A DNA stretch of 64,000 nt, taken from the IMG/VR virus record IMGVR_UViG_3300023109_000014, positions 18,462 to 82,461 of that record; one strand, given 5' to 3'. Made by a program: the position numbers and the translations under genes. The notes below the pieces were generated by a model. It made no database searches, was not told where the DNA came from, and saw nothing but the letters and a program-made list of their open reading frames with translations. Of the stretch, positions 1,205 through 64,000 are shown in pieces (positions within the stretch are counted from its first letter, which is position 1; each line of letters starts with the position of its first letter). Source of the stretch: a virus.

Positions 1205-2262
1205 TGAATAAAGTTAATTTAACAGAAGACCAAAAACAGTTTATTCAAAAAAACAAAGATAAACTTACCGACCTTGGAGAAATGACTCGGTCTGTATTTA
1301 TGGACGAAAGCCTTGATGGAAGAACTACTGAAGGTAGATCTGTGAGAGAATATTTGATTGAGATAGGTCAAAAGTTCGACACGACAAAAGCTGTACCCGC
1401 TAAAAATATTACTTTATCAGAAGAGCAAAAAAGTTTCATATCTGGCTATGCGAAAGACGGAATGAACGCTTTTCAGATTTCTAAAATTATTTTTGCAGAT
1501 GGAGGCGTAACCCCTTTGAGTAAAGAAACTATCGTTATAGCCGACTTTATTAGAGAGAGTATGCCTGAGGGCTTAGCAGATCAAGATTCTGCAAGAGGGG
1601 TTGAGTACAACCCTCCTTGTTCTGTACTTGCTGCAGTTAAAAAAATTAACTCCGTATCTGGAACAAAATTAAATCAAGAAAAACTCACGAGGCACGAAAA
1701 GCTTTGCGCAGAAAATTTAACTAACCTACTATCTTCTCCAAGGTTCACTTCTCAGATTAATAGTTATACCAGTCAGGGAGATAGGCTTTTATTTGAAGCT
1801 GAGTTTACGAGAGCTTGTTGGGATAAGCCAGACCTTACTCCTGATGAAATAAATATGTATATTAACGTATGTATGGACTATATTAATTTAAAACAGATTG
1901 AGATTCAAAAATTAAAATTGAATGATATGTTTAATGCTGCTGAAGAAGAGACTGATCTTACTATGCGACTTACTGAAATATTAAAAACAAAGAGCGAAGA
2001 ATATAATCAATGCATAAACAGAATTGATAGAGCAATAACCAAGCTGCAGGGAGATAGATCGAAAAGATTACAATCTAGACAGCAAAGTACAGCAAGTATG
2101 CTATCATTAGTTAAACTATTTCAAGAAGAAGAAGAAAGAAATATAATGATTAAAATGGCTGAAATGCAGAAGAAAATAATTAGTGAAGAAGCGGAAAGAA
2201 TGGAGGCCATGCCAGAATGGAAAGCTAGAGTACTTGGAATATCCAGAGATGAAGCAATATGA
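1204..2262 (+). CDS. Possible small terminase subunit or DNA-binding protein
   Basis: This 352-residue protein lies two genes upstream of the large terminase. Two related helical segments, beginning LTEDQKQFI (about residue 6) and LSEEQKSFI (about residue 71), look like repeated helix-turn-helix-like modules. The C-terminal half (about 215-340) is strongly charged and alpha-helical, probably coiled coil. A DNA-binding N-terminus, a coiled oligomerising C-terminus and this position suit a small terminase subunit, although 352 residues is long for that family. No decisive motif is visible. The start overlaps the preceding stop (TAATG) and the stop overlaps the next start (ATGA), indicating translational coupling. 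Confidence 0.4.
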   Translation: MNKVNLTEDQKQFIQKNKDKLTDLGEMTRSVFMDESLDGRTTEGRSVREYLIEIGQKFDTTKAVPAKNITLSEEQKSFISGYAKDGMNAFQISKIIFADGGVTPLSKETIVIADFIRESMPEGLADQDSARGVEYNPPCSVLAAVKKINSVSGTKLNQEKLTRHEKLCAENLTNLLSSPRFTSQINSYTSQGDRLLFEAEFTRACWDKPDLTPDEINMYINVCMDYINLKQIEIQKLKLNDMFNAAEEETDLTMRLTEILKTKSEEYNQCINRIDRAITKLQGDRSKRLQSRQQSTASMLSLVKLFQEEEERNIMIKMAEMQKKIISEEAERMEAMPEWKARVLGISRDEAI

Positions 2263-3224
2263 TTAATGAAGATAAAATGTATGTATGTAAAGTTTGCGGC
2301 GAATCCTTTAATACTGAACGTAGCCTACACGCGCATTTAAAAAAACATAATTTGACTGTTGCGGAATATTATACCACGCATTTTCCTAAAAAAGATTTAT
2401 TGACAGGAGACCCTTTACCTTTTAAGAATAAAAAAGATTACTTTAATAGAGATTTTTTATCTAGAAACAGATTGATAAAATGGTTAAGCATGCAGTCTAG
2501 GGAGGATGCTGAGGTAAGAAAATATATAATTAATAAACTTGAAAAAAGAATCAAGTCTAAAAATCTACCTCATGCTCCTTGCCATATAGAATTGCAATTA
2601 TGTCAATTACCGCCTATAGAATATTACAAAAAGATATTTGGGAGTTATAGCGAAGCCTGCAAGGAATTGCAGGGCAGCAATATGGAACCTATCTATTCCC
2701 AGAATATTGTATCTGATTTTTTTGAATCCAATAAGCGTTATGACGATGTTGAAGTATTGATAGACACTCGAGAGCAACAACCGTTACAGTTTAACAAATC
2801 AAGAATTTTAAAATTAGACTTTGGCGATTATACTACTGGTGGAGATCAATACTCTTACACTTACGTGGACAGAAAAAGCGAGGCAGACTTTAAGTCAACT
2901 CTTTCAGTTGGTTTCGAAAGATTTAAGAAAGAAATTTGCAGGGCTGTTGAGTTTGACAGTTTTTTATATATTGTTGTTGATTCTAGCATTAATCAAATAG
3001 AAAAGAATAATGGTTTCTCCGCTCATAAAGCTAACCTTGCTTTCATATGGCATAACATGCGATTTTTAATAAATGAATATCCTAAAAATTGCCAATTTAT
3101 ATTTTCTAGCAGTCGAGCAGCTTCTGAATTTTTAATTCCTAGATTACTAATTGAGGGAAAAAACTTATGGGGTTGCGACATGCAGTTTCATATAGACAAA
3201 AGAATAAGAGAAAAGAAACAATGA
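2259..3224 (+). CDS. C2H2 zinc finger-ERCC4-type nuclease
   Basis: This 321-residue protein has two readable parts. Residues 8-30 are a classical C2H2 finger: Cys10-x2-Cys13-x12-His26-x3-His30. Residues about 162-290 match the ERCC4/XPF nuclease fold: LIDTREQQPL (167-176), then FGDY (188-191), then VDRKSEADF (203-211). The last is a variant of the V-E-R-K-x3-D catalytic motif with Asp for Glu. The family cuts branched or structured DNA using a divalent metal. It overlaps its neighbours by ATGA on both sides and lies directly before the large terminase. That is where many phages place an HNH nuclease needed for packaging. I infer a role in resolving or trimming DNA during packaging; recombination or repair is the alternative. 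Confidence 0.75.
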   Translation: MINEDKMYVCKVCGESFNTERSLHAHLKKHNLTVAEYYTTHFPKKDLLTGDPLPFKNKKDYFNRDFLSRNRLIKWLSMQSREDAEVRKYIINKLEKRIKSKNLPHAPCHIELQLCQLPPIEYYKKIFGSYSEACKELQGSNMEPIYSQNIVSDFFESNKRYDDVEVLIDTREQQPLQFNKSRILKLDFGDYTTGGDQYSYTYVDRKSEADFKSTLSVGFERFKKEICRAVEFDSFLYIVVDSSINQIEKNNGFSAHKANLAFIWHNMRFLINEYPKNCQFIFSSSRAASEFLIPRLLIEGKNLWGCDMQFHIDKRIREKKQ

Positions 3225-59500: not shown

Positions 59501-59658
59501 ATTTTCAAAATAATGATTATAATTTAAATTCTCAAAAAGATACTACGGTCCATACTCCTTCTGCGGGATCTTCCAGTTATGACTCAACCTCGTTTGATAT
59601 AAATCAACAAAATTTACAAGCTCCAGTAAGGCTTCATAATGGTCAGTTTTTATTATAA
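56509..59658 (+). CDS. Tail hub or tip protein candidate
   Basis: This 1,049-residue protein begins one base after the previous stop and shares its last base with the next ATG (TAATG). Residues about 240-300 read NALDIIVSLAGACGWFLYAN then DEGKLDAL. This is the pattern of baseplate-hub or tip attachment proteins, where a helix-Gly-strand unit is followed by an acidic Gly turn. Upstream are beta strands (IEVGISSLKRSQILTDFEID). A Gly-rich loop (GRGNGGGGGGLM) sits near residue 600. Large tail-tip genes usually form the central fibre or hub; the identity is inferred. Confidence 0.5.
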   Translation: MSDEEKIGTPFFSASGVDGKHIDLNNNSQTSSFGGKNCIIPGSLFGATPYDITFQGGFGGRPGTHTVKYVNPDGKYDIDITNIDVNNPIEVGISSLKRSQILTDFEIDRSVGGKILTARFQDKAIVDLQRHLIVCRQIVKFGSFSSRLIGDGLSRACVSVYGRMFHLKLGAPSRLDIDTLALGPSPVIYIGGDASGNTGGRNSSGPAYKKVSQEYVFWNSTWIANDEKISKYIGPGLKNLLNNDNNKNLRFLQNSGNALDIIVSLAGACGWFLYANDEGKLDALSSLPRISRVNASNLGSQCSVTSIKEKVSITNTFDKGGWATWKHDDNYEAEFKANFLAIDLLGIPIPVCDPEDPLAEKDDAQSRPQNAGNGDGAGEEVAIISNSSFVSMYEKKMSKAYIAQLKRFLKMSVLDHLWENWEGMTSYIHLKRLREVDVDGTIKVFTTQAQKHHDGKNIRTNCQQKGILPVKGGDKEKIGENAAVNKLFPCLSPAVLNFPVQRDEDQWNKAMLNDNANKNQEIKVPLGGGRQILVLDAGQNLVCANLKNGKSQPMPNGDHDLKGKVQGGKWAGGAAADRAELLKTLALTIGRWWILADGRGNGGGGGGLMTERQHSYRNYHPAHGTISWYDKRMSVRDTPFSAVYERVYGDRLSEWESVGGIRRVGTPKEEEEREAALKEGKEVKDTYDEVKDLTISQFLQLAYRLKYRNISGDTGKVSDEEIEEEAFKGGGAMDSGEIETANEAAKVLCARGEPLGIVIWDSNIKEPELPLQNEWMASIGAGIESKTDKMGSDIVRWSMQQATIGVIMNPMKNLRNMVKKKNGDIVEDVDKPDSLDASLDNIILNRDFEYIGKNRVKRILFESKRARRFFNQYIDLPSCENQVFKSQFAHKKMDGQILWRSLDCYGNIEPWRYYSEGYNSGNVNNILQAEVSTMVESELDPESSYTVTTCGQSAPNLPSVGQGLQSYTVSIAKDGSVMTTFQLSREAMRSGSSFSSAYFQNNDYNLNSQKDTTVHTPSAGSSSYDSTSFDINQQNLQAPVRLHNGQFLL

Positions 59659-61265
59659 TGGCAATATTTTATCAATATTTTGATACTCCTTGTACTGGGA
59701 GTTACTTTGATTATACATTTGATATTGGACCTTTTAAGGATTATGCTGCGTCACAATTAGAGGAGGATTTTTCTTCTAATTTTGAACCCGTAAGTCATAG
59801 GAATCTAGCTTTTGGGTTTGTGAATATTCCAACTGGATATTTAAAAGTTATGGATAGAGATGAGGATTCAGGCTCTGCAGTTATTAAGGATTTTCCTACG
59901 GGAGAATATTATGATTGGGTTAATGGTAATGAATATAAACCTTATTACAGTAATAATTCTGGCTTGGAAACTTCTACTTTTGAAGATATGAGAAAAACAT
60001 TTATCTTGGATCCACGCTTAGATGAAAAACAAATACTTTCTGAGTTAGATTTTATAACTTTTTTTACTGGGGTTAATTGTAGGTTATATGACCAAGATAA
60101 TAATTATGTGTTTTCATATTCCGAAGAAGTTCAAGGTCCAATTAGTATACATGGTAACGTGTTTGAATATAATCAAAATTATTCTATAAATTCTCTGCCA
60201 GTTAATTCCAATGTTAGCAGGGGTTGTAGTAATCACGGGCATGTATCTGGGCTATTTTTTACAAGGTCTGATTTTGAATATAGTACTAGCGTAAGAAGTC
60301 ATGTTAATCTTGATAAATGGACTCCTGCGAATATGGATGATAAGGTATGGTTTAATGAATCAGGTCTATTTCCTTCGCATGTAGATTTACAGGGTAATCA
60401 TTATCCTCAATGGATTGCTAACTCTAGTATTACTGGGGAATATATCAACGATCAAATACTTTATTTAACAAGCGGTAATCGAAACAGTCCCGTGGATCTT
60501 AGAAATTTTCTTGCAGAAGGTTCTACAATAGTTCCAGAAACTGTTTACGAAATCTCTCAAGAAAAATCATGCAAAATGACCAGCGGTTTAAAAAGTGATA
60601 ACTGGGATAATATAACTGCTTGGAGGGGAGAAAATCTTTCTATAAATCTTGGAGAAACTCTGACTCCGCAATTAGGTTTAGTTATGTTAGTTAAGGTTGA
60701 TTCTTCGAGTGATGCTTCTACATATTTTAATGCTACGAGTGACAATAATGACCTTTTGTTTCTCGGCCAAAAAGGTTTAGCTAATAATTTACAAATTGAT
60801 TTTGGGGTAAATGGGGATGATTATGAATTTGATTTTAGTTTTGCTGGAACAAAATCCAAGACCCCTTTAGTTGTGAGTGATAACGATTGGCACATTTTAC
60901 ATTGGATTTATGACGAATTTTCTACTATGTTAAATAGTTGGCTTGATGGCACCAGAGTCGGAAGTGAACTTATAAACGTAAGTGAAACGCTTCCTACTGG
61001 TTTTAATTGTAATTTACAAAACCAATCTTTTATAGAAGTTGCCGAATTATTAATATACCCTCAACAGAGAACTGATGTCGAACTTTTTGATATGGAAAAA
61101 AACTATTTCATAGAGGGGTACTTATCTCATAAATGGAATTTAGATTTATTAAGCGCTAGTCATCCTTTTTACCATGGTTATCCTGCTAATTTAAAAGCGG
61201 GAATGAAGGGAGGGCCTTTAGAGCATTTATATACTGCAACAATCTCTAACCTAACTCATTTTTAA
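59658..61265 (+). CDS. LamG-like receptor-binding tail protein
   Basis: This encodes 535 residues. The C-terminal 220 have the concanavalin A-like (LamG) pattern: LGLVMLVKVDSSSDASTYFN, NDWHILHWIYDEFSTMLNSW, and then AELLIYPQQRTDVE. It ends in the characteristic EGYLSHKWNLDLL followed by HPFYHGYP, the closing signature of many bacterial LamG domains. The N-terminal half is beta-rich and unrecognised. It is the last gene of the long + strand block and shares a four-base TTAA overlap with the minus-strand gene. I infer glycan or receptor binding. Confidence 0.6.
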   Translation: MAIFYQYFDTPCTGSYFDYTFDIGPFKDYAASQLEEDFSSNFEPVSHRNLAFGFVNIPTGYLKVMDRDEDSGSAVIKDFPTGEYYDWVNGNEYKPYYSNNSGLETSTFEDMRKTFILDPRLDEKQILSELDFITFFTGVNCRLYDQDNNYVFSYSEEVQGPISIHGNVFEYNQNYSINSLPVNSNVSRGCSNHGHVSGLFFTRSDFEYSTSVRSHVNLDKWTPANMDDKVWFNESGLFPSHVDLQGNHYPQWIANSSITGEYINDQILYLTSGNRNSPVDLRNFLAEGSTIVPETVYEISQEKSCKMTSGLKSDNWDNITAWRGENLSINLGETLTPQLGLVMLVKVDSSSDASTYFNATSDNNDLLFLGQKGLANNLQIDFGVNGDDYEFDFSFAGTKSKTPLVVSDNDWHILHWIYDEFSTMLNSWLDGTRVGSELINVSETLPTGFNCNLQNQSFIEVAELLIYPQQRTDVELFDMEKNYFIEGYLSHKWNLDLLSASHPFYHGYPANLKAGMKGGPLEHLYTATISNLTHF

Positions 61266-61489
61266 TTTTTAGGATTCATTACATCTTTATATTCTAAGTT
61301 TTTTAATATATCAGCTAATAATCTAGAATATTTTGTTTTCATTCTTCTTCTTTTACAACTGGTGCATCCTGGTCCTTGAATTGAATTATTAAAGTCTTGC
61401 CAAAGCTTATCACACTCCTTGAAAGATAAATGCTTGCATCCTTGAGAGAAAAACTGTCTACTGATTTTATAAGAGTCGTACTGTTCCAT
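61262..61489 (-). CDS. Small Cys-containing protein at the end of the fibre operon
   Basis: This encodes 75 residues, basic and helical. Cysteines are at 18, 26 and 42, with 45 in a CTSCKRRRMK segment, so a metal site or disulfide is possible. It starts two bases after the stop of the membrane-protein gene, implying one operon. Its stop codon TAA (minus) overlaps the stop of the preceding + strand gene at TTAA 61262-61265, so the two transcription units converge with no spacer. Function unknown. Confidence 0.5.
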   Translation of the reverse strand: MEQYDSYKISRQFFSQGCKHLSFKECDKLWQDFNNSIQGPGCTSCKRRRMKTKYSRLLADILKNLEYKDVMNPKN

Positions 61490-61491
61490 TG

Positions 61492-61830
61492 TTATTCGAA
61501 TTTTTTAAAAAAATAAAATATAAATACTGGCCAAGAAAGAGCGCAGATTGGTATATACCATAGTGAAAAATTATTTAAATAAGTTATTAGTATTGAAAGA
61601 AAAATAGATAACCAAAATCCTAAGCATAACGGACAAAAAAGTAACTCTGATAATTTTGGATGTTTTTGAGAAATCATTAAAGCTAAGTCATCTATTGTGT
61701 CAAAGCTTTCATCTTTATATATCCATCCTATTGCATGAATACTAATAAAGGAAAAGTTCCATATAGTTATCATGCCTGAAGAGATTAACCCTCCCATAAT
61801 AAAGAATAAAATTTCTATTGAGTAGTCCAT
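61492..61830 (-). CDS. Integral membrane protein with CPLCLGFW motif
   Basis: This encodes 112 residues with three predicted membrane segments at about 5-30, 66-86 and 90-108. FCPLCLGFW (residues 65-73) has paired cysteines and is reminiscent of DUF1360-like membrane proteins of bacteria and phages, though this is a resemblance rather than a certain match. It begins immediately at the stop of the cyclophilin gene (TAG followed by ATG). Its place beside tail-fibre genes leaves a holin-like or envelope role possible, but unproven. Confidence 0.5.
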   Translation of the reverse strand: MDYSIEILFFIMGGLISSGMITIWNFSFISIHAIGWIYKDESFDTIDDLALMISQKHPKLSELLFCPLCLGFWLSIFLSILITYLNNFSLWYIPICALSWPVFIFYFFKKFE

Positions 61831-62670
61831 CTAAATCTCTTGATACTCGACGGGTCTATCAATCTTTATTTCGCTATTTTGCGTAAATTTTTTAAGCATG
61901 TCTTCCGCTGCATTATTTGCTTTTTTTTGAAGTTTAGTTTTTTCAATTCTTTTTTGTTCGTTCTTTTCGATAACTTGTTTAGCTTCTTTGCTTTCAGAGT
62001 CTGACCCGAAACTTGCGCTAATTAGGTCTGCGGCCTGCGCTCCTTCTTCAAGTAACTTTACGTAAATTTCTTTATTGTTTTTGTCTTCAGATTCTTCTTG
62101 ATTTTTTAAAGACAGGTATTCTTCAAAAGCTTTGGAAGATTTAAACTCTTCATCTAGCCACACTGATTTGATAACTATTTCTGATAGAGGGTTTTCTGCA
62201 TGAGCTTCTCTTTTTGAAATTTTAGATACTACCTCCATACCTTTTGATACATAACCAAAAATCGTATAACCTGGCTTCTCTGAGCTTGGGTTAGAGTTCC
62301 AGTTGTCGCTCAGGTTTATAAAAAACTGAGTTCTTGCGCTATCTGGCAATCTGTTTCTCGCCATTCCTATTGTTCCAGCCATATTCGATAAGCCGTTGAA
62401 TGATTCATTTTCAATTGTTGGATAATTTAAACAATCATTTGCTTCGTTATGTTTATCTAAAACATCATGCCCGCCGCCTTGAATAATATAATCTGGCATT
62501 ACCCTGTGGAATATTTTGTTTACATAAAAATCATCTATAATTAAATCAATGAATCTACTTACTGAAAGGGGTGATCTCCATGCATCAAGCATAACATCAA
62601 AACCTCCATCATTAGTATCTATTCTTGCTTTAATTAAGTGTTGTTGTTTAATTAATTCTTGTCGATTCAT
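61831..62670 (-). CDS. Cyclophilin-type peptidyl-prolyl isomerase
   Basis: This encodes 279 residues. Residues about 12-180 are a cyclophilin domain: FHRVMPDYIIQGGG (54-67, with the catalytic Arg56), GTIGMARNRLPDSARTQFFI (99-118) and PGYTIFGYVSKGM (133-145). The set matches bacterial prolyl isomerases, so activity is likely; the classical Trp and His positions are replaced as in many bacterial homologues. Residues about 180-279 are a charged helical extension, probably coiled coil. It lies 25 bases after the collagen-like gene, suggesting it isomerises prolines in that fibre or in other virion proteins. A phage-encoded cyclophilin is unusual. Confidence 0.9.
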   Translation of the reverse strand: MNRQELIKQQHLIKARIDTNDGGFDVMLDAWRSPLSVSRFIDLIIDDFYVNKIFHRVMPDYIIQGGGHDVLDKHNEANDCLNYPTIENESFNGLSNMAGTIGMARNRLPDSARTQFFINLSDNWNSNPSSEKPGYTIFGYVSKGMEVVSKISKREAHAENPLSEIVIKSVWLDEEFKSSKAFEEYLSLKNQEESEDKNNKEIYVKLLEEGAQAADLISASFGSDSESKEAKQVIEKNEQKRIEKTKLQKKANNAAEDMLKKFTQNSEIKIDRPVEYQEI

Positions 62671-62675
62671 AGTAA

Positions 62676-62681
62676 ATAATA
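62676..62681 (-). promoter_or_regulatory. Possible leaderless -10 element of the cyclophilin gene
   Basis: On the minus strand TATTAT is followed by TTACT and then the cyclophilin ATG, matching the five-base gap seen at the + strand GTGTAT promoters. The GTG part is not present. In this AT-rich region it could occur by chance, so it is listed with low confidence. Confidence 0.3.
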
Positions 62682-62695
62682 CTATCGTTTTGGTT

Positions 62696-64000
62696 TTAAT
62701 TTTCTACTATAAAATCTTTTTTACCGATTGTCTTCCAGAAGTTTTCATTCTTTTCGAATTCATCTTTTGATTTTTCAATTAACCTATGATTTCTGAAACC
62801 TAGTCTTGTACCCATTATTAAAAAGTTTATTTTTGAAAAAGTAAATAAATCAAGATCTTCTTTTTTGCATTTAATTAATACTTTTAATTGGTGTTGCTCG
62901 TTATTTGAATTGCTTGAGCCTATTTCTTTGAGGGTGATTTTTTCACTAATAATGTCAAACGCGATTATAATTGGTTGATTGCATGTATAAGACATTACTT
63001 CTATAGAATTTTTCTCGCAAGACTCTACGAAAATTGGGTCTATTTTGAATTCAATGTATTTATCTCCTTTGTTTTGAATAGATATGTTATCGAAAAATAA
63101 AACCTCTGGAGACTCTACGCAAGATAAAGCTCTGAATCCATAATTTTCAGTTTCTATTACGCAGCTTTTTGAACCTGGAGGGCCTGGAGGTCCTTGCGGC
63201 CCATTACCTCCACCTGGAGTTCCTGGAGTTCCATCAGTTCCTGGAGTTCCATCAGTTCCATCAGTTCCTGAAGTTCCATCAGTTCCTGGAGTTCCATCAT
63301 TTCCTGGAGTTCCGTCAATTCCGTTAATTCCGTCAATTCCGTTAATTCCGTCAATTCCGTCATTTCCTGGAGTTCCTGGATCTCCGTCAACTCCTTTGTC
63401 TCCGTCAATTCCTTTATCTCCGTCAATTCCTTTGTCTCCGTCAATTCCTTTGTCTCCGTCAATTCCTTTGTCTCCGTCAACTCCTGGAGTTCCATCAGTT
63501 CCTGGAGTTCCATCAGTTCCTGGAGTTCCATCAGTTCCGTGAGTTCCATCAGTTCCGTGAGTTCCATCAGTTCCGTGAGTTCCTGGAGTTCCATCAGTTC
63601 CTGGAGTTCCATCAGTTCCGTGAGTTCCATCAGTTCCTGGAGTTCCATCAGTTCCTGGAGTTCCATCAGTTCCGTGAGTTCCATCAGTTCCGTGAGTTCC
63701 ATCAGTTCCGTGAGTTCCATCAGTTCCATCAGTTCCGTGAGTTCCATCAGTTCCATCAGTTCCGTGAGTTCCATCGGTTCCGTGAGTTCCATCGGTTCCG
63801 TGAGTTCCTGGAGTTCCATCAGTTCCGTGAGTTCCATCAGTTCCATCAGTTCCATCAGTTCCTTGAGTTCCATCAGTTCCTGGAGTTCCATCAGTTCCTG
63901 GAGTTCCATCAGTTCCGTGAGTTCCATCAGTTCCGTGAGTTCCATCAGTTCCGTGAGTTCCATCAGTTCCGTGAGTTCCATCAGTTCCATCAGTTCCGTG
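62696..64000 (-). CDS. Collagen-like fibre protein, 5' end beyond the window
   Basis: On the minus strand the true frame is Gly-X-Y. It enters from the right edge and runs without a stop to TAA at 62696-62698, giving at least 434 residues. About 92 Gly-X-Y triplets come first (GTD, GTP, GTH, GID, GDK, GIN), with one break in register (GGG-N) just before GPQGPPGPPGSK. A unique 156-residue C-terminus with several Cys follows, and there is no membrane anchor. Collagen-like repeats form triple-helical rods in phage fibres; the C-terminus could be a knob or trimerising head. The cyclophilin gene follows closely. A shorter frame at 62696-62995 is just its C-terminus. Confidence 0.85.
   Translation of the reverse strand, partial: HGTDGTDGTHGTDGTHGTDGTHGTDGTHGTDGTPGTDGTPGTDGTQGTDGTDGTDGTHGTDGTPGTHGTDGTHGTDGTHGTDGTDGTHGTDGTDGTHGTDGTHGTDGTHGTDGTPGTDGTPGTDGTHGTDGTPGTDGTPGTHGTDGTHGTDGTHGTDGTPGTDGTPGTDGTPGVDGDKGIDGDKGIDGDKGIDGDKGIDGDKGVDGDPGTPGNDGIDGINGIDGINGIDGTPGNDGTPGTDGTSGTDGTDGTPGTDGTPGTPGGGNGPQGPPGPPGSKSCVIETENYGFRALSCVESPEVLFFDNISIQNKGDKYIEFKIDPIFVESCEKNSIEVMSYTCNQPIIIAFDIISEKITLKEIGSSNSNNEQHQLKVLIKCKKEDLDLFTFSKINFLIMGTRLGFRNHRLIEKSKDEFEKNENFWKTIGKKDFIVEN
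63167..64000 (-). repeat. Gly-X-Y tandem repeat region of the collagen-like gene
   Basis: Tandem 9- and 18-base units encode Gly-Thr-Asp, Gly-Thr-Pro, Gly-Thr-His, Gly-Ile-Asp and Gly-Asp-Lys. A block of GDK/GID units (about 63380-63480) and a GIN/GID block (about 63310-63365) interrupt the GTD/GTP/GTH units. All unit lengths are multiples of three. A second frame on the same strand is also open throughout because of the repeat, but it only spells Met/Thr-Glu-Leu triplets and is a shadow. Confidence 0.95.

What the first reader, a model, noticed from the sequence alone, without database searches (positions are those of the whole stretch)
61831..64000. A collagen-like fibre next to a phage cyclophilin
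The collagen-like gene is followed after 25 bases on the same strand by a prolyl isomerase with a helical extension. Prolyl isomerisation is rate-limiting in collagen folding and cyclophilins assist it in animals. A phage carrying its own cyclophilin beside a Gly-X-Y fibre suggests a dedicated folding partner. The tape measure's many V-P-N-F motifs are another possible substrate.
Basis: inference. Interest (0 to 1): 0.75.

Follow-up and report, generated by a model that had tools for sequence, protein, structure and literature searches.

The report
Phage collagen fibre with prolyl isomerase
A phage carries a collagen-like tail fibre gene directly followed by its own proline-folding enzyme, and in a relative the pair is joined by a prolyl-hydroxylase-like enzyme, so the phage may carry its own small collagen-maturation kit; this rests on gene arrangement and has not been tested in the laboratory.

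Summary
A cyclophilin gene (61831-62670, minus strand) starts 25 bases after a collagen-like fibre gene (62696 to at least 64000, cut by the contig end). The cyclophilin keeps its catalytic Arg, Gln and Phe. The fibre has at least 88 Gly-X-Y triplets and a C-terminal cap domain related to phage tail proteins.

Three IMG/VR contigs share this tail module, and they form a graded series. Relative G005 has collagen alone. The window has collagen plus cyclophilin. Relative G010 has collagen plus cyclophilin plus a 2OG-Fe(II) dioxygenase with an intact HxD...H motif, in one tight cluster. The two phages with the enzymes have many Y-position prolines (19% and 50%). G005 has 4%, although it is rich in X-position prolines.

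The evidence is one small clade. Cyclophilin is dispensable in G005, and a complete unrelated jumbo phage (FLC9) has a cyclophilin without collagen. None of 37 other cyclophilin-bearing viral contigs has the two genes side by side. Tape-measure folding remains a rival. I found no paper describing a phage collagen-cyclophilin pair.

The parts
62696..64000 (-). Collagen-like fibre gene: at least 88 uninterrupted Gly-X-Y triplets plus about 158-residue C-terminal cap; 5' part missing at the contig end
   Evidence: PF01391 E 3e-41; PHROG collagen-like minor tail / tail fibre hits; triplet count; contig end
62696..63172 (-). C-terminal cap domain of the fibre, probably the trimerising or receptor-facing tip
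   Evidence: 61/53/28/25% identity to caps in L088, L089, L095, L096; matches C-termini of Lactococcus phage PLgT-1 and Enterococcus phage tail proteins; model pLDDT 77; fold matches to phage tail proteins in BFVD, none significant in PDB
61831..62670 (-). Cyclophilin-type peptidyl-prolyl isomerase (residues about 16-170) with about 105-residue C-terminal extension; the sequence begins without a recognisable signal peptide (by eye)
   Evidence: PF00160 E 4e-33; R56, Q64, F117, A104 aligned to catalytic CypA R55, Q63, F113, A101
62671..62695 (-). 25-base gap between fibre stop and cyclophilin start (26 bases in G010)
   Evidence: ORF coordinates
61492..61830 (-). Small membrane-type protein (DUF1360-like, CPLCxGFW motif), next gene in the cluster; in G010 the 2OG oxygenase gene lies between cyclophilin and this gene
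   Evidence: PF07098 E 9e-4, below cut-off; phrog_781; 71/53% identity in G010/G005
61262..61489 (-). 75-residue protein with CxxC, last gene of the minus-strand cluster, conserved in all three phages
59658..61265 (+). Convergent tail-module gene (535 aa) shared by the three phages
   Evidence: 46/36% identity
56509..59658 (+). Tail-module gene (1049 aa), a marker of this tail type; only two other IMG/VR contigs were found to carry it
   Evidence: 66/54% identity; search

Best explanation
The cyclophilin is a phage-encoded maturation enzyme for the collagen-like tail fibre encoded just upstream. Fibre chains are made in the host cytoplasm, and the C-terminal cap is the likely trimerisation point. 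Three chains would then zip into a triple helix from the cap. Zipping needs every X-Pro bond in trans, and the cyclophilin speeds that step. In relative G010, a 2OG-Fe(II) dioxygenase gene directly downstream would additionally hydroxylate Y-position prolines (GPP), stabilising the helix, by analogy with the animal cyclophilin B / prolyl hydroxylase system. Shown here: gene order, domain identities, retained catalytic residues, synteny in a diverged relative, and a graded set of accessory genes. Inferred: the substrate, the isomerase activity, the hydroxylase activity, and co-expression.
For: Adjacency and gap are conserved in G000 and G010 although the cyclophilin is 53% and the cap 61% identical. 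R55, Q63, F113 and A101 equivalents are retained. In G010 the collagen, cyclophilin and 2OG oxygenase genes sit within 2.2 kb; the oxygenase has PF13640 E 5e-14 and its HxD/H motif. Y-position Pro is 19% (G000) and 50% (G010) against 4% in cyclophilin-less G005 and 0-3% in two unrelated fibres with a related cap. In unrelated cyanophages S-CAM9, S-PRM1 and S-8S56, genes annotated as 2OG-Fe(II) oxygenases closely follow collagen-like tail fibres (PF13640 confirmed for one). Cyclophilin B catalyses the rate-limiting step of collagen folding in animals (PMC11383833; PMC3900401), and phage collagen domains do form true trimeric helices (PMC3368898).
Against: Only one clade with two cyclophilin-bearing contigs, so effectively one acquisition. 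G005 has the same fibre with 77% X-position Pro and no cyclophilin. The window fibre is only modestly proline-rich, with no X-position Pro in the 88 triplets. Pocket-wall residues W121/L122 are N/S, so activity may be reduced. In 37 other cyclophilin-bearing viral contigs no collagen run lies near the gene. FLC9 has a cyclophilin without collagen. Hosts normally have their own PPIases (general knowledge).
Confidence: 0.5

Rival explanations
1. The cyclophilin is a general late-phase folding helper for virion proteins, above all the giant 10,437-residue tape measure with its V-P-N-F motifs, and its place beside the fibre is only late-gene clustering.
For: Host PPIases are known phage dependencies: PpiB for siphophage LL5, and FkpA for HK97, where it is linked to the tape measure and DNA entry (PMC7229145). 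VPNF motifs are more frequent in the two cyclophilin-bearing phages (16 and 15) than in G005 (3).
Against: G021, without cyclophilin or collagen, has 6 VPNF in a 4,561-residue tape measure, about the same density as the window (1.3 against 1.5 per 1,000 residues). The gene is next to the fibre on the opposite strand from the tail genes, not beside the tape measure.
Confidence: 0.25
2. The cyclophilin is an auxiliary gene acting on host proteins or the host stress response, placed in a variable cargo slot after the fibre.
For: Accessory genes vary at this slot (nothing, cyclophilin, cyclophilin plus oxygenase). The phage also carries Hsp20 and pyrophosphatase. Phage FLC9 carries a cyclophilin away from any collagen.
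Against: The cyclophilin has stayed beside the fibre over large divergence, and a third gene of possible collagen chemistry joined it in G010. Hsp20 is in all five contigs tested, whereas cyclophilin was found only with the fibre.
Confidence: 0.15
3. The enzyme is degenerate or acts only as a binding chaperone or virion structural part through its C-terminal extension, not as an isomerase.
For: W121/L122 equivalents are N/S and F60 is Y; the extension is conserved, with a KKFT-NS motif, in both copies.
Against: Arg55, Gln63 and Phe113 equivalents are all kept; E. coli PpiA and PpiB also lack W121.
Confidence: 0.1

Closest known systems
Animal cyclophilin B / P3H1 / CRTAP collagen-folding complex
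   Same: Cyclophilin plus a 2OG-Fe(II) oxygenase (in relative G010) associated with a Gly-X-Y protein
   Different: No sequence link beyond the cyclophilin and dioxygenase superfamilies; no CRTAP; cytoplasmic phage genes; no activity shown; the window itself has no oxygenase
Mimivirus collagens with their hydroxylases and glucosyltransferase (L230, L593, R699; PMC9546862)
   Same: A virus with collagen-like proteins and its own collagen-modifying enzymes
   Different: Eukaryotic giant virus; that paper does not mention a cyclophilin; not a tail-fibre gene cluster
Prophage collagen-like tail fibres of E. coli (EPclA, PMC3368898)
   Same: Phage fibre with a collagen triple helix and a C-terminal trimerisation cap
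   Different: That paper does not mention an isomerase; no match of our cap to EPclA was tested
Collagen-like tail fibre followed by 2OG oxygenases in Synechococcus phages S-CAM9, S-PRM1, S-8S56
   Same: Collagen-like fibre with 2OG-Fe(II) oxygenase genes closely downstream
   Different: No cyclophilin hit in any Synechococcus phage; repeats are Lys-rich in Y rather than Pro-rich
E. coli PpiA/PpiB cyclophilins
   Same: Closest solved relatives of the catalytic domain
   Different: No C-terminal extension; host enzymes; pocket-wall residues differ

Membership tests
Cyclophilin (PF00160) | Full-length cyclophilin domain over curated cut-off | tested here: met
   115.3 bits against a cut-off of 21.7, profile 3-157 of 159
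Cyclophilin (PF00160) | Catalytic residues Arg55, Gln63, Phe113 | tested here: met
   R56, Q64, F117; W121/L122 not conserved
Cyclophilin (PF00160) | Peptidyl-prolyl isomerase activity | not testable with these tools
   needs protein
Collagen-like triple-helix protein | Long uninterrupted Gly-X-Y run | tested here: met
   at least 88 triplets, PF01391 E 3e-41
Collagen-like triple-helix protein | Forms a stable trimeric triple helix | not testable with these tools
   Thr/Asp-rich with Pro in 19% of Y positions; needs CD and trimer assay
Phage tail fibre | Cap domain related to known phage tail proteins, in the tail gene region | tested here: met
   genomic position beside the tail module
Phage tail fibre | N-terminal virion attachment domain | tested here: inconclusive
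   the 5' end lies beyond the contig end in all three phages
Collagen-maturation cluster (cyclophilin plus prolyl hydroxylase) | Isomerase and hydroxylase genes both beside a collagen gene | tested here: not met
   present in relative G010 as far as domains go, but the window contig has no PF13640 gene; so the window is not filed as such a cluster
Collagen prolyl 4-hydroxylase | Substrate is Y-position Pro of Gly-X-Y | not testable with these tools
   G010 enzyme is assigned only to 2OG-FeII_Oxy_3 and phrog_61; nearest solved proteins are PKHD-type hydroxylases

The most novel reading that the evidence does not exclude
Tailed phages of this clade carry a collagen-maturation operon (fibre, cyclophilin and, in one member, a prolyl-hydroxylase-like dioxygenase). 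This independently parallels the animal collagen-folding machinery, and accessory enzymes are added as Y-position proline content rises.
Probability: 0.35. Interest if true: 0.85.

Novelty: new variant of a known kind. Interest (0 to 1): 0.62.

Why it matters
If true, collagen folding assistance by an isomerase, and probably hydroxylation, evolved as a compact gene cluster in bacteriophages. It would be the first phage fibre with its own prolyl isomerase, to the extent the papers searched here show. It would explain how phages fold long proline-bearing triple helices quickly in a bacterial cytoplasm, and it would offer a small bacterial system for making stable recombinant collagen. It also makes a testable prediction: accessory enzymes track Y-position proline.

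Tried and rejected
1) Wider conservation by terminase relatives: 50 contigs searched, cyclophilin in one and collagen in two. From the position of the terminase, most of these contigs end before the tail module (for example G006, G007), so these negatives say little. 2) Scans of IMG/VR with the single cyclophilin, the 1049-aa tail protein and the DUF1360 protein found nothing new. 3) A GTDB genome scan with the cyclophilin pair found only 25-27% identical proteins in Nostoc-type cyanobacteria, so no host or prophage copy was found. 4) AlphaFold of the cyclophilin from two sequences failed (pLDDT 36); nothing is concluded about the extension. 5) PDB fold search with the cap gave no significant match. 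6) VPNF motifs as the cyclophilin target: not supported by G021. 7) 'Phage' cyclophilins of Listeria, Enterococcus, Salmonella, E. coli and Acinetobacter records were set aside as probable host DNA; this was judged from record length, annotation and host, not tested. 8) My first Gly-X-Y regular expression would have missed the positive control; it was redone.

Full report
OBSERVATION. The window is bases 18462-82461 of an 82,461-base IMG/VR virus contig, so its right end is the contig end. On the minus strand a collagen-like ORF runs from 64000 (open) to 62696, and a cyclophilin ORF runs 62670-61831, with 25 bases between them. Pfam gives Collagen at 3e-41 and Pro_isomerase at 4e-33. The visible fibre holds 88 uninterrupted Gly-X-Y triplets, mainly GTD, GTH and GTP, followed by a non-repetitive C-terminal region. 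The true repeat length is unknown because the contig ends inside it; both relatives with the same gene also end inside it.

WHAT THE FIBRE IS. The 158-residue cap is 61%, 53%, 28% and 25% identical to caps behind Gly-X-Y repeats in four other viral contigs. Its first part matches the C-termini of a Lactococcus phage PLgT-1 tail protein and of Enterococcus phage tail proteins (phrog_6616 weakly). A model of the cap (pLDDT 77) finds phage tail proteins in the viral library with E down to 1e-7, including two annotated 'collagen triple helix repeat' proteins at weaker E-values, but nothing significant in the PDB. The gene lies beside a tail module. A tail fibre is therefore the natural reading; the N-terminal attachment domain was not seen.

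WHAT THE ISOMERASE IS. The nearest solved relatives are E. coli-type PpiA. In an alignment with CypA, PpiA and PpiB (their sequences typed from general knowledge), the residues matching CypA Arg55, Gln63, Phe113 and Ala101 are kept, Phe60 is Tyr, Met61 is Ile, and Trp121/Leu122 are Asn/Ser. PpiA and PpiB also lack Trp121. The protein begins without a recognisable signal peptide (read by eye), which fits folding in the cytoplasm, where phage fibres are made. The 105-residue extension is conserved in one relative. Its helical nature was predicted only at low confidence. PHROGs contains no matching family at E 0.01. Among 50,697 phage records only 22 match, most of them in records that look like host DNA; the clear exception is jumbo phage FLC9.

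CONSERVATION. Three contigs carry this tail module. G005 (collagen - DUF1360 - 75 aa) has neither cyclophilin nor 2OG oxygenase. The window has collagen - cyclophilin - DUF1360 - 75 aa. G010 has collagen - cyclophilin - 2OG oxygenase - DUF1360 - 75 aa, with a 26-base gap between collagen and cyclophilin. The oxygenase is 2OG-FeII_Oxy_3 at 5e-14, with HAD at residues 132-134 and a second His at 192. Divergence of the cyclophilin (53%) is in line with that of its neighbours (46-71%), so it has probably been inherited with the cluster. G021, a distant relative whose contig includes a tape-measure homologue, has neither gene. Most of the other terminase relatives are fragments that probably do not reach the tail module, so they are not evidence either way.

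PROLINE POSITION. Y-position proline is 19% in the window, 50% in G010, 4% in G005, 0% in L095 and 3% in L096; X-position proline is 0, 55, 77, 16 and 3%. Cyclophilin goes with Y-position rather than total proline. This is five data points from very few independent events, and the two relatives expose only 22-26 triplets in the longest run at their contig ends. It is a prediction, not a test.

RECURRENCE ELSEWHERE. Of 38 viral contigs matched by a strict cyclophilin DNA pattern, one is G010. Of the other 37, 11 have collagen-like repeats somewhere in the contig, but none has a Gly-X-Y run in the 3-15 kb held around the cyclophilin (the G010 positive control fires). The background rate of collagen in such contigs was not measured. 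The complete FLC9 genome has a cyclophilin and no collagen. In contrast, 2OG oxygenase genes closely following collagen-like tail fibres recur in unrelated cyanophages S-CAM9, S-PRM1 and S-8S56 but not within 10 kb in S-MbCM100, S-SSM5 or NCTB. After the L095 fibre the next gene is a family-2 glycosyltransferase. So the slot after phage collagen-like fibres repeatedly, though not always, holds enzymes that could modify or fold protein.

MECHANISM. Most likely the cap trimerises the chains, the helix zips from it, and the cyclophilin removes cis X-Pro blocks; in G010 hydroxylation would add stability. [quoted passage not shown] PMC3900401). Phage collagen domains form real trimers (PMC3368898). 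The precedent of host PPIases needed for phage growth supports both this view and the tape-measure rival (PMC7229145). The tape-measure rival is weakened because VPNF motifs are about equally dense in G021, which lacks cyclophilin.

NOVELTY. Searches for phage, cyclophilin and collagen-like proteins found no paper describing such a pair; the library is open-access only. The closest precedent is mimivirus, with collagens and collagen-modifying enzymes (PMC9546862). I rate this a new variant of a known kind, with a moderate chance of being a real phage collagen-maturation cluster.

Noticed in passing
L088 (G010:C1) 1547-2194 +: A 2OG-Fe(II) dioxygenase gene directly after the cyclophilin in the closest relative with the same tail module; part of the argument but outside the window.
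   Followed up: yes
window 18917-50230 +: A 10,437-residue putative tape measure gene (about 10,566 in G010, 8,172 in G005); at about 1.5 angstrom per residue (general knowledge) it would imply a tail of about 1.5 micrometres.
   Followed up: partly
L002 14462-14848 - and 15297-15803 -: Hsp20 small heat-shock protein and inorganic pyrophosphatase genes; Hsp20 is also in four relatives.
   Followed up: partly
L197 (S-CAM9), L199 (S-PRM1), L200 (S-8S56): Cyanophage collagen-like tail fibres with Lys in about 40% of Y positions are followed by two 2OG-Fe(II) oxygenase genes; these could be lysyl or prolyl hydroxylases of the fibre.
   Followed up: partly
L095 10394-12064 +: Family-2 glycosyltransferase gene 6 bases after a collagen-like fibre carrying a related cap domain.
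   Followed up: partly
window 2259-3224 +: Phage protein with an N-terminal C2H2 zinc-finger-like match (just below the Pfam cut-off).
   Followed up: no
L088, L089 and window right end: All three contigs break inside the collagen repeat, so assembly hides the N-terminal half of these fibres.
   Followed up: yes
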